Program-made: the position numbers and the translations under genes
NCBI GenBank assembly: GCA_024742395.1
Contig: JANSYO010000014.1
Coordinates: 1 to 64,000 of the forward strand
Direction: 5' to 3'
Length of the DNA: 64,000 nt
DNA from: Cytophagales bacterium
Lineage (GTDB): Bacteria > Bacteroidota > Bacteroidia > Cytophagales > Spirosomataceae
Shown here: piece by piece, positions 5,248-58,110 of the stretch
Layout: the number at the start of each line of letters is the position of its first letter
How positions within the stretch are numbered: the stretch's first letter is position 1
The notes under the pieces: model-generated
Told to the model about the DNA's origin: nothing
The model's input: only the letters and a program-made list of their open reading frames with translations
Database searches by the model: none

Positions 5248-5622
5248 ATGTCATCACCCAAAAATGTCCTAATCGCAGAGGACTCCTCCGTAATCCAAAA
5301 CTTAGCTAAGAAGATTCTTGAGTTCCAAAATTTTAAGATCACAGCTGTAAAAAACGGAGAGCAGGTTATTCAGCTTCTTGAAAAAGAGTCTTTTGATATT
5401 GTTCTTCTTGACATCAATATGCCCGTAATGGATGGTATTGAATGTGTTCAGGCTATCAGAGAAAATGACGCAACTGCTGATATGCCGGTGGTAGCCATTA
5501 CTGGAAATGCTAGAAATTATACTGAAGACGAATACAAAGATGCTGGTTTCAATGAAGTTCTCATGAAACCGTTAAACTTTGACATGCTTGTAAAAGTGGT
5601 TAAAGACCTAACCGAAGCTTAA
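5248..5622 (+). CDS. Single-domain response regulator (CheY-like receiver)
   Basis: The 124 residues form one receiver domain with no output domain. Visible key residues are the acidic pair E11-D12, the phosphoacceptor D55 in LLDINMP, T85 in ITGNA and K107 in MKPLN. Such proteins relay phosphate within phosphorelays or bind partner proteins. No kinase gene is adjacent, so the partner is unknown. The gene ends 16 bases before the MBL-fold hydrolase gene and may be co-transcribed with it. Confidence 0.93.
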   Translation: MSSPKNVLIAEDSSVIQNLAKKILEFQNFKITAVKNGEQVIQLLEKESFDIVLLDINMPVMDGIECVQAIRENDATADMPVVAITGNARNYTEDEYKDAGFNEVLMKPLNFDMLVKVVKDLTEA

Positions 5623-5638
5623 GAGTATTCAAAACCAT

Positions 5639-6403
5639 ATGAAAATCACAATATTAGGAACGGGCACGTCATCTGGGGTGCCCGTTCTTACGTGTGATTG
5701 CTCCGTTTGTACTTCTGAAAACCCAAAAGACAAGAGACTTAGGGTCTCCGTTCTGGTTCAGACTGATCAGTTAAATATTGTCATTGACACAGGTCCGGAT
5801 TTCAGGCAGCAACTTCTCAAGCAAGGCATTAAAAAGCTTGACGCCGTACTGTTTACCCATGAGCACAAAGATCATACTGCGGGTTTAGATGATGTTCGCC
5901 CGTTTAATTACCTTCAGGGAAAGCAGTACATGAATATTTATGGGCGAGAACAGGTGCTGGAGCAATTAAAAAGAGAATTTCACTACGCTTTTTTAGAGGA
6001 GTCTTATCCCGGAGTTCCACTGATTCATACACACATCATTAAGAACAAACCTTTCTTAATTGAAAACCTTGAAATCCTGCCCATTGATGTTCTTCATCAT
6101 AAGCTACCTGTATTTGGCTTCAGGATTAAGGATTTTACCTATATAACCGATGTAAATTATATTTCTGCTAAGGAGAAAGAGAAAGTAAAAGGCACCAAGC
6201 TTCTGGTACTTGATGCACTTCAAAGGACTCCTCATATTTCTCACTTTACCCTCTCTCAAGCCATTGATTTCGCACAGGAAATAGGAGCAGAGAAAACCTA
6301 TCTTACCCACATTTCTCATAAAATGGGACTTCATAATGAGGTCAATTCAGAACTACCTGATGGAATTGAACTGGCCTATGACGGGCTTCAAATTCACTTA
6401 TAA
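5639..6403 (+). CDS. MBL-fold metallo-hydrolase (PhnP-like phosphodiesterase family)
   Basis: The 254 residues show the metallo-beta-lactamase fold: an N-terminal GTGTSSGVP strand-loop, then T-H74-x-H76-x-D78-H79 as the di-metal motif, followed by AGLDDVRPFN. Later histidines lie in DVLHHKLP and near the C-terminus in HISHKMGLH. The N-terminal CDCSVC cluster is also seen in PhnP-type proteins. These act on cyclic nucleotide or phosphoribosyl cyclic phosphate substrates, but the substrate here cannot be read from sequence. Probably cytoplasmic, because no signal peptide is present. Confidence 0.88.
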   Translation: MKITILGTGTSSGVPVLTCDCSVCTSENPKDKRLRVSVLVQTDQLNIVIDTGPDFRQQLLKQGIKKLDAVLFTHEHKDHTAGLDDVRPFNYLQGKQYMNIYGREQVLEQLKREFHYAFLEESYPGVPLIHTHIIKNKPFLIENLEILPIDVLHHKLPVFGFRIKDFTYITDVNYISAKEKEKVKGTKLLVLDALQRTPHISHFTLSQAIDFAQEIGAEKTYLTHISHKMGLHNEVNSELPDGIELAYDGLQIHL

Positions 6404-29551: not shown

Positions 29552-29730
29552 AAGTTAACACTACTAAGCTATTGAAGATGAAGCTTCAAGCTTTGGAACT
29601 CACTTAGTAGAAAAGATATAGATTTAAGACGGCTTCAAGTTTTGATGACCATCATAATGCTCAAGTAAAAGGAATATATACACATGTAGTGGTGAATACT
29701 TTTGCTTTAATTAATTACCTCTTATTTTAG
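29552..29730 (+). pseudogene. Decayed 3' end of a tyrosine recombinase (integron-integrase-like), copy L1
   Basis: Read across frameshifts, the segment spells DIDLRRLQVL and then GIYTHVVVNTFALI before a TAG at 29728. These match the conserved C-terminal boxes of tyrosine recombinases (DLRYIQ, then the active-site tyrosine in IYTHV). In-frame stops and frame changes show it is dead. It is homologous over about 180 bases to the copies at 33680, 34880, 48952 and 57984, and is followed 13 bases later by a palindrome and a gene cassette in the same direction. Confidence 0.7.
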
Positions 29731-29742
29731 GTAAAATATTTG

Positions 29743-29773
29743 CGATATATCAGACATATGTCCTGATATATCG
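29743..29773. other. 31-bp palindrome at a cassette junction (attI-like candidate), L1
   Basis: CGATATATCAG and CTGATATATCG flank the self-complementary ACATATGT plus one base. The same palindrome stands at 33874, 35066 and 57941, and a diverged one at 48908. It is followed by GTTGTGTGT (29776-29784), the start of a cassette whose end, ACACACAAC, is at 31401-31409. Confidence 0.65.
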
Positions 29774-29828
29774 TTGTTGTGTGTAATTTAAAGAAACCTA
29801 AAAAACTAACAATTCAATCAAAGAAAAA

Positions 29829-32347: not shown

Positions 32348-32483
32348 GTTGCCAACACTGTATAAGCGTAATGCGGGCGAAAGTTCTAAATTGAAACGAA
32401 TTGAATATTAACAAACATAAGGTAAAGCCGAAAGTGTAGTGCTTATAATCCCGCACTACGCTTATACTTGACCGTTATATATC
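32348..32483. other. attC-like imperfect palindrome S2
   Basis: TATAAGCGTAATGCGGG (from about 32361) pairs with CCCGCACTACGCTTATA (32450-32466). The outer ends are GTTGCCAAC and GTTATATATC. The core resembles S5 at 51416-51550 read on the other strand. No complement of GTTATATATC was found downstream, so the next cassette seems truncated. From 32484 to 32661 I see nothing else. Confidence 0.65.
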
Positions 32484-33679: not shown

Positions 33680-33861
33680 TAAAAATTAAACACTTCTTAG
33701 GCATTGTGGCTGAAGCTTCAAGCTTTGGATCTCACTTAGTAGAAAAGATATAGATTTAAGACTGTTTCAAGTTTTAGAAGACCATCATTGTTCTAAAGCA
33801 ACAGGAATATATACATGTAGGGGTGAATACTTTTGTAGTAATGAATAACCTCTTAGATTAG
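33680..33861 (+). pseudogene. Decayed 3' end of a tyrosine recombinase, copy L2
   Basis: Across frames it reads SFGSHLVEK, DIDLRLFQVL, SKATGIYT and ends NLLD-like with TAG at 33859. These correspond to the conserved HSFATHLLE, DLRYIQ and IYTHV boxes. A 2-base deletion relative to L1 breaks the tyrosine box. The next gene starts about 30 bases after the following palindrome. Confidence 0.68.
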
Positions 33862-33873
33862 ATAAAATATTTG

Positions 33874-33904
33874 CGATATATCAGACATATGTCCTGAAAT
33901 ATTG
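33874..33904. other. Diverged palindrome at a cassette junction, L2
   Basis: CGATATATCAG-ACATATGT-C is followed by CTGAAATATTG, so the right arm carries two changes from the perfect copy. The cassette-start sequence reads GTAAGCGG instead of GTT, suggesting a decayed site. Confidence 0.55.
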
Positions 33905-33945
33905 CTGTAAGCGGAAATTAAACAGACTGAACATTGAAGAATAAA

Positions 33946-34879: not shown

Positions 34880-35053
34880 ACACTTCTTAGCCATTGTGGT
34901 TGAAGCTTCAAGCTTTGGATCTCACTTATTAGAAAAGATATAGATTTAAGACGGCTTCAAGTTTTAGAGATTAATCATAATTCTAATTCGATAGAAATAC
35001 ATACACATGTAGTAGTGAATACTTTTGCTTTAATTAATTACCTCTTATTTTAG
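34880..35053 (+). pseudogene. Decayed 3' end of a tyrosine recombinase, copy L3 (clearest copy)
   Basis: One frame reads SFGSHLLEK (34911-34937). The next frame is then open for about 40 codons, giving DIDLRRLQVL, NHNSNSIEIHTHVVV and NTFALINYLLF with TAG at 35051. These align with HSFATHLLE, DLRYIQ, GHxSSKTTEIYTHV of tyrosine recombinases. The active-site tyrosine of IYTHV is histidine here, so this copy is dead beyond its frameshift. Confidence 0.75.
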
Positions 35054-35065
35054 GTAAAATATTTG

Positions 35066-35096
35066 CGATATATCAGACATATGTCCTGATATATTG
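35066..35096. other. Palindrome at a cassette junction, L3
   Basis: CGATATATCAG-ACATATGT-C-CTGATATATTG, one change from perfect. It is followed by GTTAGCCACC (35099-35108), whose exact complement GGTGGCTAAC closes the cassette at 35726-35735. Confidence 0.7.
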
Positions 35097-35115
35097 CTGT
35101 TAGCCACCATTAAAA

Positions 35116-48876: not shown

Positions 48877-48907
48877 AGTTCTTTGTTTTTGGTAATATCA
48901 CACTTCA

Positions 48908-48940
48908 GCGATATTCTAGTATAGAAGCCAGATATATCGC
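48908..48940. other. Diverged palindrome at a cassette junction, L5
   Basis: GCGATAT and ATATCGC bound a 33-bp imperfect palindrome at the place the 31-bp palindrome occupies in the other copies. On the minus strand it lies 32 bases upstream of the serine hydrolase start. Confidence 0.5.
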
Positions 48941-48951
48941 AAATATTTCAT

Positions 48952-49131
48952 CTAATCTAAAAGGTTTTTAATTACTGTAAAAGTATCTACTTCTACAGGT
49001 GTATTTTTTTCCGTAGTTACAGAATTATCGGTTGACTCGGGAGCAATGGCACACTATAATTCGAAACTGTTTTAAATCTATCTCTTTCGCTTATAAGTGA
49101 GTTCCTAAGTCTTGAAGATTAGGCCTCATCA
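48952..49131 (-). pseudogene. Decayed 3' end of a tyrosine recombinase, copy L5
   Basis: On the minus strand it reads LGTHL, then EIDLKQFRIIVCHCSRV, and after a frame change NTPVEVDTFTVIKNLLD with TAG at 48952-48954. The ending TFTVIKNLLD is the same as in copy L4, and the first parts match the FATHLL, DLRYIQ and GH boxes. It is the most decayed copy. Confidence 0.6.
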
Positions 49132-49666: not shown

Positions 49667-49933
49667 ATGAAAAGGAGTAAGCACTCAGAACATCAGATTG
49701 TGAAAGTACTCGGGGAGTACGAGAACGGTCGTAAGGTAGAAGATATCTGCCGGGAATTAAATATTCACAGAGCCACTTTCCATAACTGGAAGAAGAAGTA
49801 TTCGGGTATGAGTGGGACGGATCTGGCAGAACTAAAATCTCTTCAACAGGAGAATGCCAGACTTAAGAAGATGTATGCTGATCTGGCCCTTGATCACGCC
49901 GTTCTTAAGGATGTATTATCAAAAAAGTTTTAG
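49667..49933 (+). CDS. IS3 OrfA (helix-turn-helix transposase subunit)
   Basis: The 88 residues contain a helix-turn-helix (EDICRELNIHRATFHNWKKK) and a leucine-zipper-like helix (ELKSLQQENARLKKMYADLA). OrfA supplies DNA binding. Its end contains the slippery A AAA AAG at 49921-49927, through which a -1 shift enters OrfB. Confidence 0.95.
   Translation: MKRSKHSEHQIVKVLGEYENGRKVEDICRELNIHRATFHNWKKKYSGMSGTDLAELKSLQQENARLKKMYADLALDHAVLKDVLSKKF
49921..49927 (+). promoter_or_regulatory. Programmed -1 frameshift site A AAA AAG
   Basis: The zero frame reads TCA AAA AAG TTT TAG. Slipping back one base continues GTT TTA GGG CCT, which is in frame with OrfB. This is the usual signal that makes the IS3 OrfAB transposase. 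Confidence 0.85.
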
Positions 49934-49950
49934 GGCCTTTTGAAAAGCGA

Positions 49951-50823
49951 GTGGAGGTGAATTACATCGTAAAAGAGCATGGCATGAGCATTCAAAAGGC
50001 CTGTAAGATCATGGATTTAAGTCGTTCAGTTTATTACTATTCTTCTGTAAAAGACGATACAGAGGTGAGAGAGAAGTTGCTAGGTTTAGCCGAAAATCAT
50101 CCGAAAGAGGGGCAGGATAAGATGTATCTCAGGATACGGAATCAGGGTATTTTATGGAATTATAAGCGTGTACGCAGGATTTACTGTCTATTGGGTCTAA
50201 ACCTTCGTCAAAAGAGTCGCAAGAGGCTTCCTGCACGTGTTAAAGTGCCATTGATTCAGCCGGATGGTATCAATCAAACCTGGAGTATGGATTTTATGCA
50301 TGATGTTCTTGGAAATGGCCGGAAGATCAGAATTTTGAATATCATTGATGATTATAACCGGGAAGCCCTGACAGTAGAAGCTCATTTCAGTATTCAATCA
50401 AATATGGTAGTACAATGTCTGGAAGATCTTATTGCTTATAGAGGTAAGCCTAATCAAATCAGGGTTGACAATGGCCCGGAGTTTATTGCAAATGTGTTGG
50501 CAGACTGGTGTAGAGAAAATGAAATAAGACTACTTTATATCCAGCCTGGAAAGCCATTCCAGAATGGATACATTGAACGTTTTAACAGGACTTTTAGAGA
50601 ATCCATTTTGGATGCGTATCTGTTTGAAAATATCCATCAGGTCAGAATCCTGGCAGAAGAATTTATGAACGATTACAACACCCAAAGACCGCATGAATCG
50701 TTGGGAGGGTTCACCCCGGAAAAGTTCAAAAATTTAGGAAACTCATTTCCAGCAGGGGGAGCTAGCTCCCCCTGCTGGAAGAACAATAAATCAATATCTT
50801 TGTTTAATTATACTTTGTCCTAA
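49951..50823 (+). CDS. IS3 OrfB (DDE transposase)
   Basis: Counted from GTG 49951 (290 residues), the rve integrase core has D114 (WSMDFMHD), D173 (RVDNGPEF) and E209 (NGYIERFNR), that is D-D-(35)-E. In the fusion the frame begins at 49927. The last codons run through a 34-bp perfect palindrome, giving the unusual GGASSPCW tail. Confidence 0.95.
   Translation: MEVNYIVKEHGMSIQKACKIMDLSRSVYYYSSVKDDTEVREKLLGLAENHPKEGQDKMYLRIRNQGILWNYKRVRRIYCLLGLNLRQKSRKRLPARVKVPLIQPDGINQTWSMDFMHDVLGNGRKIRILNIIDDYNREALTVEAHFSIQSNMVVQCLEDLIAYRGKPNQIRVDNGPEFIANVLADWCRENEIRLLYIQPGKPFQNGYIERFNRTFRESILDAYLFENIHQVRILAEEFMNDYNTQRPHESLGGFTPEKFKNLGNSFPAGGASSPCWKNNKSISLFNYTLS
50747..50780. other. 34-bp perfect palindrome inside the OrfB end
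   Basis: TTCCAGCAGGGGGAGCT is followed directly by its exact complement, with no loop. It is G/C-rich in an AT-rich surrounding. It could form a strong hairpin in the transposase mRNA or in DNA; no T run follows immediately. Confidence 0.85.
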
Positions 50824-51415: not shown

Positions 51416-51550
51416 CCGCACAACGGTTTCGGCTATGCGTAGTGCGGGATTTCAAGGCACTTCACTTTCCGTTTAGCTGTTAGTTTATTTAATGTAATTA
51501 CTTTCATATCATTACTTTAGCCCGCATTACGTATAGCCATTGTTGTGCGG
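51416..51550. other. attC-like imperfect palindrome S5
   Basis: GGCTATGCGTAGTGCGGG (to 51448) pairs with CCCGCATTACGTATAGCC (51521-51538). The outer ends are CCGCACAAC and GTTGTGCGG. The core words are shared with S2, read on the opposite strand. It separates the membrane-protein cassette from the defence cassette. Confidence 0.7.
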
Positions 51551-51577
51551 TCGTACTTCTTTTTCGTCCGTCTGTCA

Positions 51578-51612
51578 GCGTTGGCAAAGACATACTCTTT
51601 TGCAATTTTTGG
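51578..51612. repeat. Left copy of a short direct repeat flanking the defence operon
   Basis: AGCGTTGGCAAA, six variable bases, CTCTTTTG recurs at 57831-57856 on the same strand. The right copy is part of a longer inverted repeat. Confidence 0.5.
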
Positions 51613-51677
51613 TTGTAGCGAGGGCTGGTGCGAATTGAAAATGTGTATGGCTTTTAGCGTAGGTAAATTATTCACGA

Positions 51678-53219
51678 TTATTCTCGTGATTCCTTTTCAT
51701 TACGTTCTTTTTCAATTTCAAACGGTATTCTTAATAAGTTGTCCTTAATAAATTTAACCGTATCGTGGCCAATACTTCCTGTCTTGTTCCAAGCTTTCCA
51801 TTCAGAAACTCCGTCATAAACTACGTGTCTTAAAAATACCAAAACACCGTTGTCATCTTTTATTTCTTGCCAATGAGGATGATTAGGGTTAAAGACTACG
51901 ATTAATTCGTAATTATCCTTTTTTTGAGCGGCAGAATCAGATATAACATAAGGGTCAAATGGTGACATATCTTCATCAGTATAAAGCTTGACAAGCAAAC
52001 TGCCAAGTTTTATAATAACAGGTTCGGATATTCGGTTTATGACGGCTTCAAGTAAGAAATCATTAGCTTTTTCTAATGCAATTTCTGGTGGTATCTCAAT
52101 ATTCTCTATTAAATCGATGGCAACTTCATTTTCCATTTCGTGATGCAAATTCCCGAGTGCAACCTCAATGGCTTTAACATCTGATATATCAACAGATTCT
52201 CGAACTCTTCTAGTTAGAGCTATTCTGACTAATTCTTTTACTTCTTCTTTAAGTTTATTTTCTAGTTCTTCTTCTTGTTCACCAGTCCAGAGTATTTGAT
52301 CTTTTGTGTGGCTAACATCAAATCCATCAATAAAAATTTCTCCAATTAGTCTTTGATTTACTAAATCATTTCTACCACCATCTTGTTCACCAAAAATTTC
52401 ACTTGGTCGATAATTTGTATTTATTACCCTTTCTGATTGTACTAAAGCAAAACCTGCTTGACCTCTGTCTCCTCTGTTTAAAACCCCTGCCCAACCTTTT
52501 ACAGGCTTTCCATCAACAATAAAATCAAATTCTTTTTTTGTTCTTTCTCCTTCAAAATTCTCTACTAATAGGCTATCTAAATTTTTCCAAGTTAGAAATT
52601 TATCCATCCATTTTATTTCCAGTTTTTCCGATAGTAAATCATAGCGGTAAATTGAAGATAAATATGACCTTACTTTTGATAATGTTCTACCGACAAAACG
52701 TCTATGCAAGTCCCAAATACGAATATTAGTGTAATGTGATTCTTTATCAACTTCATTTTCTTCAATTTCAAGAGAAATATTGCCATTTTCAATTTTTCGT
52801 ATGTCTACAGTTATCTTATATTCTTTGTTATTTCCTAGACGACTTGTAGTAACAGACCATTTATCACCTAACCAAAAGGAAGAAGTTTTAAGTCCTAACC
52901 CGTACTTGCTTCTACCAGTGTTTATTTCTGGTTTTTGACCAGTGTTAAAAGCTCTTCTTAACACTTCTTCGTTCATTCCAATAGAATTGTCTTTAATTTC
53001 GAAATAATCATCAGATAAATTTTCCCCTCTAAAATATTCTATGTCAACGAACAAAGACTCCCCATCTAGTTCTAGTTGTTCGTCTAGCTCTTCCTTGTTT
53101 TCTTCATAGGCTTGTGTTGAGTTGTCAATATATTCGGCTAATGCGTACCAAAGCTTATATGATAATCGTTTGTAAGATTCAGCAATATTTGCTGTAAAAG
53201 TTAAGTTTAGATTTTCCAT
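51678..53219 (-). CDS. MORC-like GHKL ATPase, last gene of the defence-candidate operon
   Basis: The 513 residues contain an HSP90/MORC-type GHKL ATPase: N-box AEYIDNS (E29, D32, N33), G1 KDNSIGM (D77, G81) and G2 GRSKYGLGLK (G102, G107, G109). An S5-like domain follows (about 200-330). The form YGLGLK is close to that of MORC proteins. Bacterial MORC/MutL-like ATPases are known in operons with DNA methylases and nucleases. It follows the nuclease-like gene by five bases. Confidence 0.82.
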   Translation of the reverse strand: MENLNLTFTANIAESYKRLSYKLWYALAEYIDNSTQAYEENKEELDEQLELDGESLFVDIEYFRGENLSDDYFEIKDNSIGMNEEVLRRAFNTGQKPEINTGRSKYGLGLKTSSFWLGDKWSVTTSRLGNNKEYKITVDIRKIENGNISLEIEENEVDKESHYTNIRIWDLHRRFVGRTLSKVRSYLSSIYRYDLLSEKLEIKWMDKFLTWKNLDSLLVENFEGERTKKEFDFIVDGKPVKGWAGVLNRGDRGQAGFALVQSERVINTNYRPSEIFGEQDGGRNDLVNQRLIGEIFIDGFDVSHTKDQILWTGEQEEELENKLKEEVKELVRIALTRRVRESVDISDVKAIEVALGNLHHEMENEVAIDLIENIEIPPEIALEKANDFLLEAVINRISEPVIIKLGSLLVKLYTDEDMSPFDPYVISDSAAQKKDNYELIVVFNPNHPHWQEIKDDNGVLVFLRHVVYDGVSEWKAWNKTGSIGHDTVKFIKDNLLRIPFEIEKERNEKESRE

Positions 53220-53224
53220 ATTAC

Positions 53225-54013
53225 CTAGTTTTCTTTAATGTAATACTCATTATTATCTGATTTTATAAGAAAGTATTTCTTATTGATATTTAATGGGTTT
53301 TGTCCTTTTGGAATTAAATATGTGGTATTACCAGAGTTAAGCCTTTCCCATTTAGTTTTCCTTCCATTATCTATGAGAATTATTTCTTCGCCATTATCAA
53401 TATTTAGTATTTTGGGTGAAGATACAATTAGCATATTAGCAGGATATTTAGGGAACTTACATCTTGATCGAGCAATTTCAATTATAGGGTACTCTCCGTC
53501 TATTCTGTAAGCTTCAACACCATCAGGATGGTCGAACATACCAAATACTAAAATACCTGTCCTTGGAAAACTCTTCGCTTCATCTGCCCATTTGGGATAT
53601 TCATCTACCATTACCAATACTCCTGGGTCATCTTGAAGGATTAATTTTTTTAAACTATTCTCACATAAATCAGAGTTTTTACTAACTAGATAAGTTGAAA
53701 TTTCTGTAGCATTATATCTTCCATTTGAAAATACTCGTATTTGCGTTTCTGTGTGCCCTTTAAATGGTTTTTTAGCAAGTTCAACTTCAATAACATACCA
53801 TCTACTGTAGTCTTTTTTAATTAGACATAGGTCTGGTTGACTTGATTCACCATTATACTCAATAGTTTTTTTTAGAGGTAATGTATAATATTCTGGGAAC
53901 ACATCTTCAGAGCGGGCAATAATTGTCCTTTCTAAAGTGTCTTCAACGTATGTGCCTGGTTCAAATTCTTCATACCAATCGTCTAATATTAATAATTTTG
54001 ATTTCCCTTTCAT
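53225..54013 (-). CDS. Predicted PD-(D/E)XK-like nuclease component
   Basis: The 262 residues contain S-Q-P-D61 and, fifteen residues on, E76-V-E78 with K81 following (WYVIEVELAKK). This resembles the D...ExK core of restriction-like nucleases, but the canonical lysine position is glutamate, so the assignment is tentative. The C-terminal half is beta-rich. It overlaps the methyltransferase gene by four bases. Confidence 0.55.
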   Translation of the reverse strand: MKGKSKLLILDDWYEEFEPGTYVEDTLERTIIARSEDVFPEYYTLPLKKTIEYNGESSQPDLCLIKKDYSRWYVIEVELAKKPFKGHTETQIRVFSNGRYNATEISTYLVSKNSDLCENSLKKLILQDDPGVLVMVDEYPKWADEAKSFPRTGILVFGMFDHPDGVEAYRIDGEYPIIEIARSRCKFPKYPANMLIVSSPKILNIDNGEEIILIDNGRKTKWERLNSGNTTYLIPKGQNPLNINKKYFLIKSDNNEYYIKEN

Positions 54014-55266
54014 ACTTTAGCTCCCATAAAATGTTTTGTACTTTCTTTAATCATTTCATAAGTCAGAACTGATTTCCCATTCAATCGGTTGTTGTTCTCT
54101 AATGGGTTAATATCTGAAAGGATTACAATTCTATCAGTGGCAGTTGCTTTCCCTTTTGTCTCTCCCCAAATTCTTGTTGTTTTATCTACACCTTGAATGT
54201 AATCTGAAAATATCCAAACATTTTTGAATAGTTTATTTTCCTTTACCATTAAGGCAAAATCTCGAGCTAATGGAATCACACTATCTTTAGACTTTGCGAC
54301 ATCTCCAATCACAAAAACAGCTACGCCATCAGGTTTGAGCATTTTTTTAAATTCAGTCAATGTTTTTTTTGAAAATTGAACCCATTGGTTAATATTCAAA
54401 TCATCATCTAATTTTTCTGAAATTTCGATTGGGTCAGAATTTAAAAACCAAGAACGAATCCAATTTTGTTTGGCATAATTTACAATTCCCAAATAGGGTG
54501 GAGAAGTAAGTAATAAATCTACTTTTCCTTGATATTTTTTTAGTTCTTCTGATTTTGAAATTTCTTTAGCATCACATTCGGTAATAAATGCTTCCTGTTT
54601 TGGCGATTTATGTTTGCCAAATATTCTTTCAACTTTTTCTTTTAAAATATCAAAGACATTACGGTTTACACGTTTCAGCTCTTTGGTTTGGACAAAACGT
54701 CTAACATATTCAGGCGACATACTGAAAGTATTCGGCATACTTATGGAAAGATATCCAGAAGTTCCGTCTTTTCTTTCTCCACCGTGCATAATACCCAAAA
54801 CTGCACCAATTAAAAATTGGTCTATTTTGCAGGAAGATGTTAAAAGTTCATCTTTTAAATAACAAAGTTGAGCAATCGTGCCTTGATGAAAAATTAAATG
54901 AATTTCATCCGATTCTGCTTGTGCCTCTGGAAGATAAAGTGCGTAGTCATATTCACTCTCTAAATCATCAATTCTAGAGATAACATCACTTTTTTTAAGG
55001 AAGTGACTTTTAGCCTTGCTTAAGGCCAATGCAATTGGGTTTAGGTCAGAACCAAAAGATTTTCTATTTAATAATCTACTTTCTAGAATTGTTGTTCCTC
55101 GCCCTGAAAAAGGGTCAAATACTAAATCATTTTCATCTGTAAAATATTTAATGAAATAATTAGCTAATGACGGAGGGAATGCTCCCAAATAAGAACAAAG
55201 AGAATGTAAAGGGTCTGAATCGCTTTTATCAGCCCAAGGAGTTACAAAAACTTTCTCTTCAATCAT
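54010..55266 (-). CDS. Site-specific DNA methyltransferase (predicted N4-cytosine or N6-adenine)
   Basis: The 418 residues have motif I at 50-59 (FDPFSGRGTT), SDLNPIA after it, and the catalytic motif IV TSPPY at 254-258. SPPY is commonest in N4-cytosine enzymes. About 190 residues between the motifs may hold target recognition. A late VFVIGDVAKS strand completes the fold. The start overlaps the ATPase gene upstream by four bases (ATGA). Confidence 0.85.
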   Translation of the reverse strand: MIEEKVFVTPWADKSDSDPLHSLCSYLGAFPPSLANYFIKYFTDENDLVFDPFSGRGTTILESRLLNRKSFGSDLNPIALALSKAKSHFLKKSDVISRIDDLESEYDYALYLPEAQAESDEIHLIFHQGTIAQLCYLKDELLTSSCKIDQFLIGAVLGIMHGGERKDGTSGYLSISMPNTFSMSPEYVRRFVQTKELKRVNRNVFDILKEKVERIFGKHKSPKQEAFITECDAKEISKSEELKKYQGKVDLLLTSPPYLGIVNYAKQNWIRSWFLNSDPIEISEKLDDDLNINQWVQFSKKTLTEFKKMLKPDGVAVFVIGDVAKSKDSVIPLARDFALMVKENKLFKNVWIFSDYIQGVDKTTRIWGETKGKATATDRIVILSDINPLENNNRLNGKSVLTYEMIKESTKHFMGAKV

Positions 55267-57518
55267 ATTTCAACATTTTCAAGTTCAACACTTTCAATGA
55301 TTATCGATTCAAAGAAATCATTAATCATTCCGCACACAGTTTCACTCGCATTCCTTAATTCAGATTCTTTGATTTTCTCATATGATTCAGTAGGTATTTC
55401 GTCATCATCTTTTGTTAATATGGTTTCAGGGTTGTTTTTGTCAAGCACAAAAGCGTGAAAAGAAATATGTTCTAAATATTTGTTTTTAATGTTTTGAACA
55501 GCATCTTCATTTTTTCGTTGTGCACGTTCAACAAGTCTTTGGAGGTTCTTATTTTCTTCTGACACATAAATCACTACTTCGTCTTGGTCACTAACAACAC
55601 TTGCAACGCTATGCTCATTCCAATTGTTTTCTTCAAAAAACGGATGGTCCTCACCAATAAAATCAACCCTAATATTTGGAGATTTGTTTTTACCTTTACC
55701 ATCATCACCCGAATTTTCAGGTCTTTCAACAATTTCTATTTCAACTGAATCAGAAAAAGACCTTTGTCCTATAGGTCTCAACTCCAATGTTATTTTTCCT
55801 TTGTCACCAATTTCAACATCTTCATTAGTTTTGAAATAGGCAATTCCATAACCGTTTTTTAAATTTGCAGTCCCCTGATATGAACCAATAGACTGAGGTT
55901 CGATAAAGGCCGCAAACGTTTCTGGTTGTTTGACATAGTTAGGATAAGCGTCAGTACTGAACTTTATTGAAAATGACTTATTTGCATAAACTTCTTTTGG
56001 TGAACTACTAGTTATTTCAAAGAAAGTTGGTGGGTCTTCAAATGGAATTTCAGGTAATTTTTTTGTTGGTGAGCTTTCACCAACGGTTGAAGTTGTTACA
56101 GAAGTCCCGCTACCTGTATTTTGTAGATAAGTGTTTATCCTTCTAGCTAATCTTTTCTTTAAGCTATCTAGTACCTGCGTATCATCTTTCGTAAAATATC
56201 GCTGTTTTCTTTCCTTGTCAAGTAGTTGGAGTCTATCATCTTCTTTTAGAGTATCAACAGTTAGTTTCTTCAATTCTTCTACAATTGAAGTATCTTTTAA
56301 AGATTCTCTTGTGCTACTAAACAATTGTCTTTTAGAATCATTGTCAAGATAATCAGTTTCTATGTGAACTATTAAATACCTGTCTAGATAAGGCAGTTTT
56401 AAGTCGTTTTTAATAAGGCCGTTTCCTAAAGTTCCTTGCTTTTGACCGTTATGAGTTATAACAATTGGGTTTGAAACACTTGCGTAATGTTTAATTCTTT
56501 CTCTTGGGTCCTTTCCTAACGTGTTCAGAACCCACCAATAAATTGTAACCTTACCAGTTTTAAATGTTAAGGTAACTTGATTGTGATATTCTCTGTTTTC
56601 CGTATATGTAAGTAGTCTGTTATTTCCAGTAACAGTTCTGTTATCCGTTTTCCCTTTTCTGCGGTCAGAAATAGTAAATGGGATAACTGGGTCAAACATA
56701 TAATTATGAGCTAAATACCAAAGACCTCTTTGTGGTGCAGTCATACTACCACTATATTTTCCCAAATCCATTAATACGTGACGAACTAAAGTTCCAGGCT
56801 CAAAAGTCTCATCATCTATTTCTGCTGTGAATGGTTGTCCAGTTGTTCTGTCGACCATATACTCATACCATTCGTGTTTATCCTTATCAATATCACCAGG
56901 GTTTATTCGAACGATAGTAAATGAAACTTTACTTTTCTTTCGTTCATCTTTTTTTAAATAAGGTTTTGAAATAATGATTGTATAATTATTGTATGCTAGT
57001 GCTGTTGAACCGCCTTGTCCAAATGCACCCATCAAATGAAGTTTTCCAATCTTGTTACTTCCGTTAAGGTCTAAAATTGTCTTTGAGAAATCTTCAGGTT
57101 CTAATCCTATGCCTTTATCACGTATTTCTACAGTAGGTTTAGATTCCTTTCCAGAATCATATAATGTGACTTGAACTTTATCCGACAAATCATCAATTTT
57201 CTTATCTCTTGCAGATTTTATTTTGGAAATTTTTCCATCTTCAATACCAAACCAATTTTCAGCTGCTTTTCTTGGAGAACGAAACCCTTCTGGTTCTCCC
57301 TGATTTTTCCATTCTTTTTCTAACACAGCGTCTATTGCGTTTGTAATTCTTTCAGTTACTCCAGCTGCTGGGTCAGTTCCAATATTGATTGTTGCTAGGT
57401 TATTTCTCCGTTTACCTACATTTTCCCAGAGCATTTTACTTGCTCCAATCTTTTTGAGAATGTTGGTTACTTCCTTTGGGGTATATGCCAAAATCAGCTC
57501 TTTAAAAATTTCTTCCAT
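55263..57518 (-). CDS. Large GHKL ATPase of the defence-candidate operon
   Basis: The 751 residues contain an HATPase_c_3-type domain with N-box E56-RIT-N60-AI-D63, G1 RDKGIGL (D134, G136, G138) and G2 GAFGQGGS (G164, G167, G169). A transducer-like S5 part follows to about 440, then a linker, a beta-sandwich (about 500-620) and a unique C-terminal domain of about 130 residues. The ATP-binding residues are intact. It is only distantly like the second ATPase in this operon, so this is not a recent duplication. Confidence 0.82.
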   Translation of the reverse strand: MEEIFKELILAYTPKEVTNILKKIGASKMLWENVGKRRNNLATINIGTDPAAGVTERITNAIDAVLEKEWKNQGEPEGFRSPRKAAENWFGIEDGKISKIKSARDKKIDDLSDKVQVTLYDSGKESKPTVEIRDKGIGLEPEDFSKTILDLNGSNKIGKLHLMGAFGQGGSTALAYNNYTIIISKPYLKKDERKKSKVSFTIVRINPGDIDKDKHEWYEYMVDRTTGQPFTAEIDDETFEPGTLVRHVLMDLGKYSGSMTAPQRGLWYLAHNYMFDPVIPFTISDRRKGKTDNRTVTGNNRLLTYTENREYHNQVTLTFKTGKVTIYWWVLNTLGKDPRERIKHYASVSNPIVITHNGQKQGTLGNGLIKNDLKLPYLDRYLIVHIETDYLDNDSKRQLFSSTRESLKDTSIVEELKKLTVDTLKEDDRLQLLDKERKQRYFTKDDTQVLDSLKKRLARRINTYLQNTGSGTSVTTSTVGESSPTKKLPEIPFEDPPTFFEITSSSPKEVYANKSFSIKFSTDAYPNYVKQPETFAAFIEPQSIGSYQGTANLKNGYGIAYFKTNEDVEIGDKGKITLELRPIGQRSFSDSVEIEIVERPENSGDDGKGKNKSPNIRVDFIGEDHPFFEENNWNEHSVASVVSDQDEVVIYVSEENKNLQRLVERAQRKNEDAVQNIKNKYLEHISFHAFVLDKNNPETILTKDDDEIPTESYEKIKESELRNASETVCGMINDFFESIIIESVELENVEI

Positions 57519-57519
57519 A

Positions 57520-57750
57520 TTAAAAATTGAATGATTCGGTGTTGCTCTTTAGATTCTTTTTATATAAAGTTTCCATTGTTTTTAGTTCTTCCTTAATCGC
57601 CTTGACCATTTTATTCAAGTCTTCTTCGTTGTATTCATAGTTGTTGACATTTGAGCATTTGGAAAGACTTCTTATTCCTTTCAGAATATTGTCTACTCTT
57701 CTAGAAGCAACTCTTTTAAATCGGTCTTTTTTTAGTTCAGAGTTATCCAT
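57520..57750 (-). CDS. Small helical protein, first gene of the defence-candidate operon
   Basis: The 76 residues are strongly charged and helical: DRFKRVASRRVDNILKGIRS, SKCSNVNNYEYNEEDLNKM, KAIKEELKTME. I recall similar small proteins beside DNA methyltransferase genes in phage and defence contexts, without known function. One base separates it from the ATPase gene. Confidence 0.65.
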   Translation of the reverse strand: MDNSELKKDRFKRVASRRVDNILKGIRSLSKCSNVNNYEYNEEDLNKMVKAIKEELKTMETLYKKNLKSNTESFNF

Positions 57751-57830
57751 TGTATTAGATTTCTGTTATTATGTAGTTGCAAATATAGGATTATATACTA
57801 CATTATTATAAATATAGTAACGTTTTTTAG

Positions 57831-57930
57831 AGCGTTGGCAAAAAACAACTCTTTTGGTTTTTTCAGATTTGGGCTTTCGGGTCGGCAAAAACCAAATGTG
57901 CTGTTTTTGCGGTTGGCTTTTCTTGTATGC
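57831..57930. repeat. Inverted repeat at the head of the defence cassette
   Basis: GGCAAAAAACA...TTTTGGTTTTTT (57837 onward) pairs roughly with GGCAAAAACCA...CTGTTTTTGC (about 57883-57910). It also holds the right copy of the direct repeat described at 51578. It lies between the 76-residue gene and the cassette boundary CCGCACAAC (57930-57938) and may carry the promoter or a regulatory hairpin. Confidence 0.5.
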
Positions 57931-57940
57931 CGCACAACAG

Positions 57941-57971
57941 CGATATATCAGGACATATGTCTGATATATCG
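57941..57971. other. 31-bp palindrome at a cassette junction, L4
   Basis: CGATATATCAG-G-ACATATGT-CTGATATATCG, the exact reverse of the palindrome at 29743. It adjoins CCGCACAAC (57930-57938), which is complementary to GTTGTGCGG at 51542-51550. Confidence 0.7.
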
Positions 57972-57983
57972 CAAATATTTTAT

Positions 57984-58110
57984 CTAATCTAAGAGGTTTT
58001 TAATTACTGTAAAAGTATAAACTGTTACAGGTGTATGTATTTCTTTAAAGGTAGAATTAAAGAGGTCTTCCAAAACTTGAATCCGTCTTTCATCTACTCC
58101 ATCTATTCCA
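57984..58110 (-). pseudogene. Decayed 3' end of a tyrosine recombinase, copy L4
   Basis: On the minus strand one frame is open: VDERRIQVLEDLFNSTFK, EIHTPVTVYTFTVIKNLLD, TAG at 57984-57986. These positions match DLRYIQ, LGHxSSKTTEIYTHV and the C-terminus of tyrosine recombinases, with key residues lost. The rest of the gap to 58258 shows nothing I can support. Confidence 0.65.

What the first reader, a model, noticed from the sequence alone, without database searches (positions are those of the whole stretch)
51542..57938. Candidate defence system: two GHKL ATPases, a methyltransferase, a PD-(D/E)XK-like protein and a small protein
Five genes overlap by 4 bases or are 1-5 bases apart: 76-residue helical protein, 751-residue GHKL ATPase, SPPY methyltransferase, D61/E76-V-E78 protein, 513-residue MORC-like ATPase. 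Both ATPases keep N, G1 and G2 boxes. There is no helicase and no classical restriction subunit. MORC/MutL-like ATPases in restriction-modification contexts are established for bacteria, but I do not know a named system with this exact five-part set. The setting in a mobile cassette fits defence cargo.
Basis: partly seen in the sequence, partly recalled or inferred. Interest (0 to 1): 0.88.

Follow-up and report, generated by a model that had tools for sequence, protein, structure and literature searches.

The report
MORC-ATPase restriction-modification operon with small partner
Five tightly packed genes most likely form a mobile DNA-cutting defence against phages, in which MORC-type ATPases take the place of the usual helicase, and a small partner protein often comes with its own conserved control site in distantly related bacteria.

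Summary
In detail: five minus-strand genes, with gaps or overlaps of 1-5 bases. The whole operon recurs, in order, in Portibacter lacus and Flagellimonas beolgyonensis. Identity to Portibacter (72-88%) exceeds that of RpoB (68%), which suggests horizontal transfer. The 262-residue protein is predicted to be a PD-(D/E)XK nuclease (E28, D61, E76-V-E78) with a C-terminal B3-like DNA-binding domain, as in restriction enzymes NgoAVII and BfiI. A three-gene core (methyltransferase, this nuclease, MORC) recurs on two phage contigs. Best reading: an ATP-dependent restriction-modification system built like CglI/NgoAVII, with MORC in place of the helicase, plus a second GHKL ATPase and a small protein. 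No PADLOC 2.0.0 or NCBIfam system matches, but Iyer et al. 2008 already described helicase-free MORC + paraMORC1 + methylase/nuclease neighbourhoods: a new variant of a known kind. New here: the B3-nuclease, the phage-borne core, and the small protein as a partner of GHKL(-like) ATPases in 12 of 17 loci examined. In 7 of these 12, from three phyla, a palindrome precedes the small gene; about 1 Mb of fetched DNA held no other copy. Function is untested.

The parts
57520..57750 (-). small76: 76-aa, helical-looking protein, first gene of the operon
   Evidence: ORF; 88% and 78% identical in Portibacter and Flagellimonas; family conserved over several phyla, invariant F11 A15 R18 N34 Y38 Y40 F74 in 12 aligned sequences; no match above a curated cut-off in Pfam or NCBIfam, none in PADLOC
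55263..57518 (-). 751-aa GHKL ATPase (paraMORC-like) with C-terminal extension
   Evidence: E56/N60/D63, D134-x-G136-x-G138, G164/G169 invariant in 15 of 15 aligned sequences; 10 of 15 members reach PF13589 at E<=0.05, best 9.5e-6; own hit E=0.015, below the Pfam cut-off
54010..55266 (-). 418-aa DNA methyltransferase, motif order DPFSGRGTT first, then TSPPY; m4C or m6A
   Evidence: PF01555 E=3e-22; PADLOC MTase_II E=2e-38; nearest solved sequences are N4-cytosine MTases, E=7e-7
53225..54013 (-). 262-aa restriction-type nuclease (R protein): PD-(D/E)XK + B3-like
   Evidence: E28, D61, E76, V77, E78, H87 and Q91 invariant in both five-sequence alignments; predicted fold; structural matches; no Pfam family above cut-off
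53474..53953 (-). nuclease domain, residues 21-180
   Evidence: VIA-align: archaeal Holliday junction resolvases Z 6.3-7.0, a McrBC chain 5.9, a SPARDA chain 6.0; middling Z, motif order agrees
53228..53473 (-). B3-like DNA-binding domain, residues 181-262
   Evidence: VIA-align: rows 1-13 all match this part (12 plant B3 entries, best 4ldv Z 8.1; LlaJI.R1 Z 7.2); also R.NgoAVII B3 6.0, BfiI 5.6, UbaLAI 5.5
51678..53219 (-). 513-aa MORC-family GHKL+S5 ATPase
   Evidence: PF13589 E=8e-19; family profile reaches HtpG and MutL in PDB at E 0.001-0.005; GFALVQSERVI at 256-266 fits the MORC signature GhXhhpXXRhl of PMC2292703
57796..57819 (-). palindromic operator-like site TACTATA-N10-TGTAGTA upstream of small76
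   Evidence: only match to this pattern in 64 kb, shuffle mean 0; same site upstream of small76 in 7 distinct loci including this one, none elsewhere in 1.02 Mb, both strands
57780..57787 (-). TATATTTG, fits the Bacteroidota -7 promoter box TAnnTTTG (consensus recalled)
   Evidence: sequence; same box in Portibacter, Flagellimonas (TACATTTG) and L083
51416..51550 (-). attC-like imperfect hairpin closing the cassette downstream (CCGCACAAC...GTTGTGCGG)
   Evidence: DNA fold z = -3.5, 0 of 200 shuffles as stable
57937..58080 (-). border repeat upstream of the cassette
   Evidence: 8 main matches in the host genome, 5 of them in this window, plus 5 short reverse-strand matches from its palindromic part; one, on another contig, overlaps the end of a tyrosine-recombinase gene

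Best explanation
The operon encodes a mobile, ATP-dependent restriction-modification system that probably restricts phage DNA. The methyltransferase marks a short sequence in host DNA (m4C or m6A). The 262-aa R protein binds the unmethylated sequence through its B3-like domain and carries the PD-(D/E)XK nuclease (E-x-E type). The MORC ATPase takes the place that the DEAD/Z1 ATPase has in CglI/NgoAVII: on site binding it closes as an ATP clamp on DNA, loops or slides, and licenses the nuclease to cut. The paraMORC-like ATPase is a second clamp or regulator that adds a further check. The 76-aa protein is a dedicated partner of such GHKL ATPases and/or controls the operon through the palindrome upstream of it. 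Shown: gene content, order, conservation, motifs, phage-borne core, conserved site. Predicted from a model: nuclease and B3 folds. Inferred: horizontal transfer, methylation target, clamp mechanism, defence function, role of small76.
For: Five genes intact and syntenic in three genomes. The nuclease gene is followed at once by the MORC gene in 6 of 6 complete loci and preceded by an MTase in 5 of 6; the sixth has a PbeA-like helicase there. A seventh, cut locus starts with the MTase end followed by the nuclease start. In 395 sampled genomes of the phylum (the host included), the 3 with the nuclease are all among the 12 with a match to this MORC. The two viral contigs with the trio carry terminase and portal (L056) or integrase and head protease (L062) genes. 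Nuclease + B3 architecture; nuclease motifs invariant. MORC signature. Operon identity to Portibacter above RpoB identity. CglI/NgoAVII, built as MTase + nuclease-B3 + ATPase, needs ATP hydrolysis to cut (PMC4267653: abstract and passages).
Against: No experiment and no defence-system match. The R model has mean pLDDT 71 and structural Z scores of 5-8, which the tool calls middling; a sequence profile found no credible PDB relative. The third catalytic residue is E, not K; BamHI has E-x-E too, but that is recalled. The window MTase and the phage MTases are not closely related (E 1e-9 to 1e-13), so the MTase may have been exchanged. In G376 (L039) the only MTase relative found in the 19 kb read is a 278-aa one about 1.7 kb beyond the MORC gene on the other strand. 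The 751-aa model failed (pLDDT 36), so its extension is unexplained. Horizontal transfer rests on one reference gene and is clear for Portibacter only.
Confidence: 0.66

Rival explanations
1. Two overlapping systems: the trio is a complete R-M system, and small76 + 751-aa GHKL is a separate defence or regulatory module that merely rides in the same transcript.
For: The trio occurs without the module on two phage contigs. small76 + a relative of the 751-aa protein occurs without the trio in L016, beside a type II REase match and a C5 MTase; small76 also precedes PDC-M33A genes in 7 other loci. Most relatives of the 751-aa protein in the genomes and plasmids looked at have no trio beside them.
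Against: The GHKL and MTase genes overlap by 4 bases here, and all five genes are together in each of the 3 complete operons found that have both module and trio.
Confidence: 0.22
2. Modification-dependent or abortive system: the R protein attacks modified or replicating DNA, or kills the infected cell, and the MTase guards or regulates it, rather than classical self/non-self restriction.
For: A B3-like domain also occurs in LlaJI.R1 (its McrBC-like nature is recalled); a GHKL domain is coupled to a nuclease in the Shedu-type protein VcSduA (PMC12137116, passages).
Against: A co-encoded MTase next to the nuclease in 5 of 6 complete loci points to protection of host sites.
Confidence: 0.15
3. 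Selfish maintenance module of mobile elements (cassette array, phage) that acts by post-segregational killing, with little role in phage defence.
For: Location in a cassette-like array and on phages.
Against: Not exclusive: known R-M systems can do both (recalled). Purifying selection was measured on four of the five genes, which fits either role.
Confidence: 0.1

Closest known systems
CglI / NgoAVII R-M systems (PMC4267653; abstract and passages read)
   Same: Three-gene plan: MTase, R protein with nuclease + B3 domain, separate ATPase; ATP hydrolysis licenses cutting there.
   Different: Their R has a PLD nuclease and N is a DEAD-Z1 helicase; here PD-(D/E)XK and MORC, plus a second GHKL ATPase and small76.
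Prokaryotic MORC / paraMORC1 R-M neighbourhoods (Iyer, Abhiman, Aravind 2008, PMC2292703; parts 1-3 of 4 read)
   Same: A minority class without helicase that combines MORC with methylases or nucleases and, in a subset, paraMORC1; same MORC signature.
   Different: In the parts read: no B3 domain fused to the nuclease of such an operon (a separate VP1/RAV-domain protein is mentioned for another class), no small partner gene, no operator and no phage-borne trio; figure and supplement were not available.
Mza system and the related Z1/MORC systems (PMC9523054, one section read; Mza paper itself recalled)
   Same: MORC-type ATPase with MTase and PD-(D/E)XK genes; a relative of this MORC on a Rathayibacter plasmid is annotated beside dcm, Z1 and PD-(D/E)XK genes.
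   Different: No Z1 or AIPR match among the five proteins; MzaB score 21.5 against a cut-off of 850.
PDC-M33 (PADLOC phage defence candidate)
   Same: small76 directly precedes the PDC-M33A gene in 7 loci, and 3 of these 7 carry the same upstream palindrome (L083, L087, L089).
   Different: Different ATPase family (the 751-aa family does not match PDC-M33A); a DUF6339 protein (PDC-M33C in L083) instead of the trio.
VcSduA, Shedu type with GHKL domain (PMC12137116; passages)
   Same: GHKL ATPase coupled to a PD-(D/E)XK nuclease in tested phage defence; mutating either abolished activity.
   Different: Single fused protein with a different nuclease domain (DUF4263); the passages read present it as a stand-alone system.

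Membership tests
Prokaryotic MORC (513-aa protein) | GHKL ATP-binding motifs intact | tested here: met
   E29, D32/N33, D77/N78, G81, G107/G109/K111 invariant in 13 of 13 aligned sequences
Prokaryotic MORC (513-aa protein) | S5-domain signature GhXhhpXXRhl | tested here: met
   GFALVQSERVI, residues 256-266 (signature)
Prokaryotic MORC (513-aa protein) | neighbourhood of R-M genes | tested here: met
   MTase and predicted nuclease adjacent
paraMORC1 (751-aa protein) | intact GHKL motifs | tested here: met
   15 of 15 aligned sequences
[quoted passage not shown]
   long extension with D523, Y528, G556, P614, W633, Y681 invariant, but no S5 boundary could be modelled
paraMORC1 (751-aa protein) | sequence match to the published paraMORC1 alignment | not testable with these tools
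   figure and supplement not held
CglI/NgoAVII-type R-M | MTase + R + ATPase gene trio | tested here: met
CglI/NgoAVII-type R-M | R protein with B3 domain | tested here: met
   by predicted fold only: residues 181-262, Z 5.5-8.1 to B3 domains
CglI/NgoAVII-type R-M | PLD nuclease in R and DEAD-Z1 helicase as N | tested here: not met
   PD-(D/E)XK motifs and fold instead of PLD; no helicase match among the five proteins, MORC instead
Mza | MzaB model match above cut-off, with a Z1 protein | tested here: not met
   21.5 bits against 850; no Z1 hit among the five proteins
Type I / III R-M | helicase-translocase restriction subunit | tested here: not met
   none among the five proteins
PDC-M33 | PDC-M33A match by the GHKL protein | tested here: not met
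   0 of 15 members of the 751-aa family match any PADLOC model at E<=0.01
Anti-phage defence system | reduces phage infection | not testable with these tools
   needs plating assay

The most novel reading that the evidence does not exclude
small76 is a previously unrecognised family of controller proteins, without a recognisable HTH, for GHKL-ATPase defence operons. It binds the palindrome (A/G/T)ACTATA-N9/10-TRTAGT(A/C) upstream of its own gene, and it carries this circuit between unrelated R-M and defence cargoes in Bacteroidota, Deinococcota and Actinomycetota. The cargo here is a MORC-licensed restriction system in which two different GHKL clamps, not a helicase, decide whether a B3-guided nuclease may cut.
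Probability: 0.3. Interest if true: 0.78.

Novelty: new variant of a known kind. Interest (0 to 1): 0.6.

Why it matters
Eukaryotic MORC proteins silence genes and compact DNA, and Iyer et al. proposed that they came from bacterial R-M systems. In the search listings I saw I noticed no biochemical test of a bacterial MORC proper; the nearest is genetic, the paraMORC3-type VcSduA. The three-gene phage version is about as small as such a system can be (MTase, site-reading nuclease, MORC), so whether a MORC clamp gates DNA cutting becomes directly testable in vitro. The small protein and its conserved site give a sequence handle on a whole set of GHKL defence operons.

Tried and rejected
P0002 (751 aa) structure: three-sequence alignment, pLDDT 36; discarded, not searched. 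phmmer of P0002 and P0005 against PDB: nothing; P0003: N4-cytosine MTases; P0004: one irrelevant weak hit. P0004 profile against PDB: two irrelevant hits. The 751-aa family is not visibly close to MORC or to the PDC-M33A-type ATPases by hhalign (probability 6% and 1.5%), so I do not call the two ATPases paralogues. P0004 or its relatives in plasmids and phages: no match; P0005 in phages: none. P0004 in viral contigs with the first three-sequence profile: none; with five sequences: one, already known. PbeABCD was considered because the helicase beside the G376 copy matches PbeA; rejected, since the passages read give PbeB-D as small proteins and an ABC-type ATPase, not GHKL or PD-(D/E)XK (PMC6459918, PMC10853773).

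Operator as a general search key: the exact pattern in viral contigs gave 30 stretches, none with small76, GHKL or MORC genes by profile; I estimate that as about the chance level, so the site alone does not find the operon. A one-strand scan was superseded by a two-strand scan. The site was defined on five Bacteroidota loci and then looked for in eight further small76 loci: found in 2 (L087, L089), not in 6 (L084, L085, L086, L088, L090, L091). Against 100 shuffles of each upstream stretch, a loose motif score was reached 0 times for window, L054, L083, L016 and L087, 2 times for L053 and L089, and 23-99 times for the six misses. The phage small76 relatives without GHKL (L092-L095) lack the site too.

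small76 is not always beside a GHKL gene: 12 of 17 examined loci have a GHKL or GHKL-like gene directly downstream (window, L053, L054, L016, L083, L084, L086-L091); L085 and L092-L095 do not, and L093 and L094 look nearly identical. That the PDC-M33A-type proteins are GHKL rests on reading their motifs; of 7 tested, only L083 (E 0.016) and L088 (E 0.0012) reach a Pfam HATPase model, both below its cut-off. Two further plasmid hits of small76 were not examined (H14, same organism and same coordinates as H13, and H17). I counted by distinct locus; L014/L053 and L056/L061 are the same places.

Literature on DUF6339 (0 papers), PDC-M33 (term absent from the 4 papers listed) and integron + defence + Bacteroidota (0 papers) gave nothing; the Mza search gave PMC9523054 only; PMC8011034 was opened (part 1 of 7) and not used further.
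Full report
Observation. Five ORFs on the minus strand (proteins P0001-P0005) run 57750 to 51678 with spacings of +1, -4, -4 and +5 bases. GC in 2-kb bins is 32-34% from 51 to 58 kb, against 37-40% in the bins from 48 to 51 kb and 38-43% from 57 kb on. PADLOC 2.0.0 matches only the methyltransferase strongly (MTase_II, E 2e-38) and the MORC weakly to MzaB (E 0.002); NCBIfam MzaB gives 21.5 bits against a cut-off of 850.

Conservation and spread. In 395 genomes drawn from the phylum, the host included, the 751-aa protein has relatives in 12, the 262-aa protein in 3, the MORC in 12, and small76 (as a profile) in 7. The 3 genomes with the 262-aa protein are all among the 12 with the MORC. The genome scan of GTDB 220 with the 262-aa profile found 3 loci: Portibacter lacus (complete operon), Flagellimonas beolgyonensis (complete operon) and a cut MAG contig that starts with the MTase end and nuclease start. 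That scan relies on short patterns, so it is a lower bound; it did not list the G376 copy, which genome search found. Identity to Portibacter is 88, 72, 78, 86 and 85% in operon order; RpoB (about 1,108 aligned residues) between the two genomes is 68% identical, which suggests that the operon moved horizontally. To Flagellimonas the values are 78, 65, 71, 66 and 62% against 69% for RpoB, which is less telling. Of 15 pairwise dN/dS comparisons, 6 had unsaturated dS and gave 0.03-0.13, over four genes; small76 was saturated in all three.

The nuclease. Six complete members of the 262-aa family were compared in two five-sequence alignments. E28, D61, E76, V77, E78, H87 and Q91 are invariant in both. 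The model (five sequences, mean pLDDT 71) shows helix 26-38, strands between 42 and 66, strand 72-78 and helix 84-97, the usual PD-(D/E)XK order, and a separate beta domain at 181-262. VIA-align on Foldseek's candidates matches residues 21-180 to archaeal Holliday junction resolvases (2wiz Z 7.0, rmsd 3.1, 98 aligned), a McrBC chain (5.9) and a SPARDA chain (6.0). It matches 181-262 to B3 domains: 4ldv Z 8.1, rmsd 2.5, 82 aligned; LlaJI.R1 7.2; R.NgoAVII B3 6.0; BfiI 5.6; UbaLAI 5.5. Foldseek alone had one hit at E below 0.001, also a plant B3 protein, with a low TM-score (0.25). These Z values are middling by the tool's own note; what persuades me is that rows 1-13 all match the same part, 12 plant B3 entries and LlaJI.R1, with further restriction-enzyme B3 domains below. 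No Pfam family covers the protein above its cut-off.

The core trio. On IMG/VR contigs 3300013104_000028 (L056) and 2883794882_000007 (L062) the order MTase, nuclease, MORC recurs with genes that overlap or lie at most 23 bases apart, and no 751-aa relative was found in the DNA held. These contigs carry terminase and portal genes, and integrase and head-protease genes, respectively. In G376 (L039) the order is PbeA-like helicase, nuclease, MORC. So nuclease and MORC are the constant pair (6 of 6), and the MTase is adjacent in 5 of 6.

The ATPases. The 513-aa protein fits the prokaryotic MORC definition of PMC2292703 (GhXhhpXXRhl) with GFALVQSERVI, and its GHKL residues are invariant in 13 of 13 aligned sequences. 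More distant relatives lie beside dcm and Z1 genes: L047 is annotated dcm / ATP-binding / Z1 / PD-(D/E)XK and L048 has dcm, ATP-binding and Z1 genes, like the systems of PMC9523054 (section read). The 751-aa family keeps E56, N60, D63, D134, G136, G138 and K156 in 15 of 15; 10 of 15 reach HATPase_c_3 at E<=0.05. Iyer et al. write that a minority of MORC neighbourhoods lack helicases but have methylases or REs, and that a subset also encodes paraMORC1 with intact motifs and a C-terminal extension. This operon fits that description; I could not compare sequences with their alignment.

The small protein. small76 homologues lie directly upstream of a GHKL or GHKL-like gene in 12 of 17 examined loci. 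In four of these (window, L053, L054, L016) the ATPase belongs to the 751-aa family. In the other eight, 7 match PADLOC candidate PDC-M33A (L083, L084, L086, L087, L089, L090, L091) and one (L088) does not. That these eight are GHKL proteins rests on motif reading; of 7 tested only 2 reach a Pfam HATPase model, below its cut-off. small76 itself matches no PADLOC model. Upstream of small76, an alignment of five Bacteroidota loci showed a shared palindrome. The relaxed pattern NACTATA-N8..11-TRTAGTN, scanned on both strands of the window and of all fetched loci then held except the 30 fetched by the motif itself (1.02 Mb with duplicates), occurs at 7 distinct places. All are just upstream of a small76 gene: window, Portibacter, Flagellimonas, L083, L016, the Deinococcus plasmid (L087) and the Arthrobacter plasmid (L089, a perfect GACTATATATC-A-GATATATAGTC). 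The pattern was fitted on the first five; the last two, out of eight further loci tested, are the independent support. In the window it lies 8 bases upstream of a TATATTTG box (57780-57787). I infer a control site; whether small76 or another factor binds it is unknown.

Setting. The operon's cassette is bounded downstream by an attC-like hairpin and upstream by a repeat with 8 main copies in the genome. One copy on contig C183 (5549-5658) overlaps the end of a tyrosine-recombinase gene (5613-6392, with one stop) that is the host's best match to the integron-integrase model, at 125 bits. That is below the curated cut-off of 265, and the same search also rings, below the cut-off, in 14 of 14 control genomes, so an integron-like array is a suggestion, not a result. 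The exact core motif was not found beside the Portibacter and Flagellimonas copies, so the operon is not tied to this element.

Mechanism. The closest tested design is CglI/NgoAVII (PMC4267653): MTase, R protein with nuclease and B3, and a separate ATPase; B3 binds the site, the ATPase is stimulated by R, and cutting needs ATP hydrolysis. Here MORC would replace the helicase. Iyer et al. proposed DNA looping by MORC and paraMORC in R-M systems. I put 0.66 on this reading. The split into two modules, a modification-dependent or abortive mode, and a selfish-maintenance role remain open.

Novelty. A new variant of a known kind: the class was described in 2008. What I did not find in the paper searches made (listings) is the B3-nuclease with MORC, its phage-borne trio, or the small protein with its conserved site. 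The searches cover only open PMC papers, and Iyer's figures and supplement were not seen.

Noticed in passing
window 57937-58080; also 48906-49011, 34978-35101, 33767-33908, 29635-29781; host contigs C183:5549-5658, C197:2285-2364, C272:19345-19487: Border repeat with the palindrome GATATATCAGACATATGTCCTGATATATC, 8 main copies in the genome; one copy overlaps the 3' end of a tyrosine-recombinase gene weakly like integron integrases (below the model's cut-off; control genomes ring too), so the region may be an integron-like array.
   Followed up: partly
window 51416-51550 and 32353-32464: Two attC-like hairpin regions with related sequence (75% identical over about 112 bases); only the first was folded.
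   Followed up: partly
window 49667-50823: Two ORFs (88 and 290 aa) that read like an IS3-type transposase pair, between the defence cassette and the next repeat copy (from the translations; not searched).
   Followed up: no
L016 4015-14205: small76 + GHKL next to a C5 methyltransferase (by reading), a REase_II match, a metallophosphoesterase-like protein and an HSP90-like GHKL protein (last two by reading): another composite operon.
   Followed up: no
L018, L019, L020, L022, L049, L051: Relatives of the 751-aa ATPase near ~1060-1200-aa proteins (L018-L020, L022) or annotated PAPS-reductase genes (L049, L051), possibly phosphorothioation-type or other defence islands.
   Followed up: no
L092-L095: small76-like proteins on viral contigs without a GHKL neighbour and without the palindrome.
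   Followed up: partly
L055 1-225: MAG contig where the MTase-nuclease junction is intact but similarity to the nuclease ends after residue 42.
   Followed up: no
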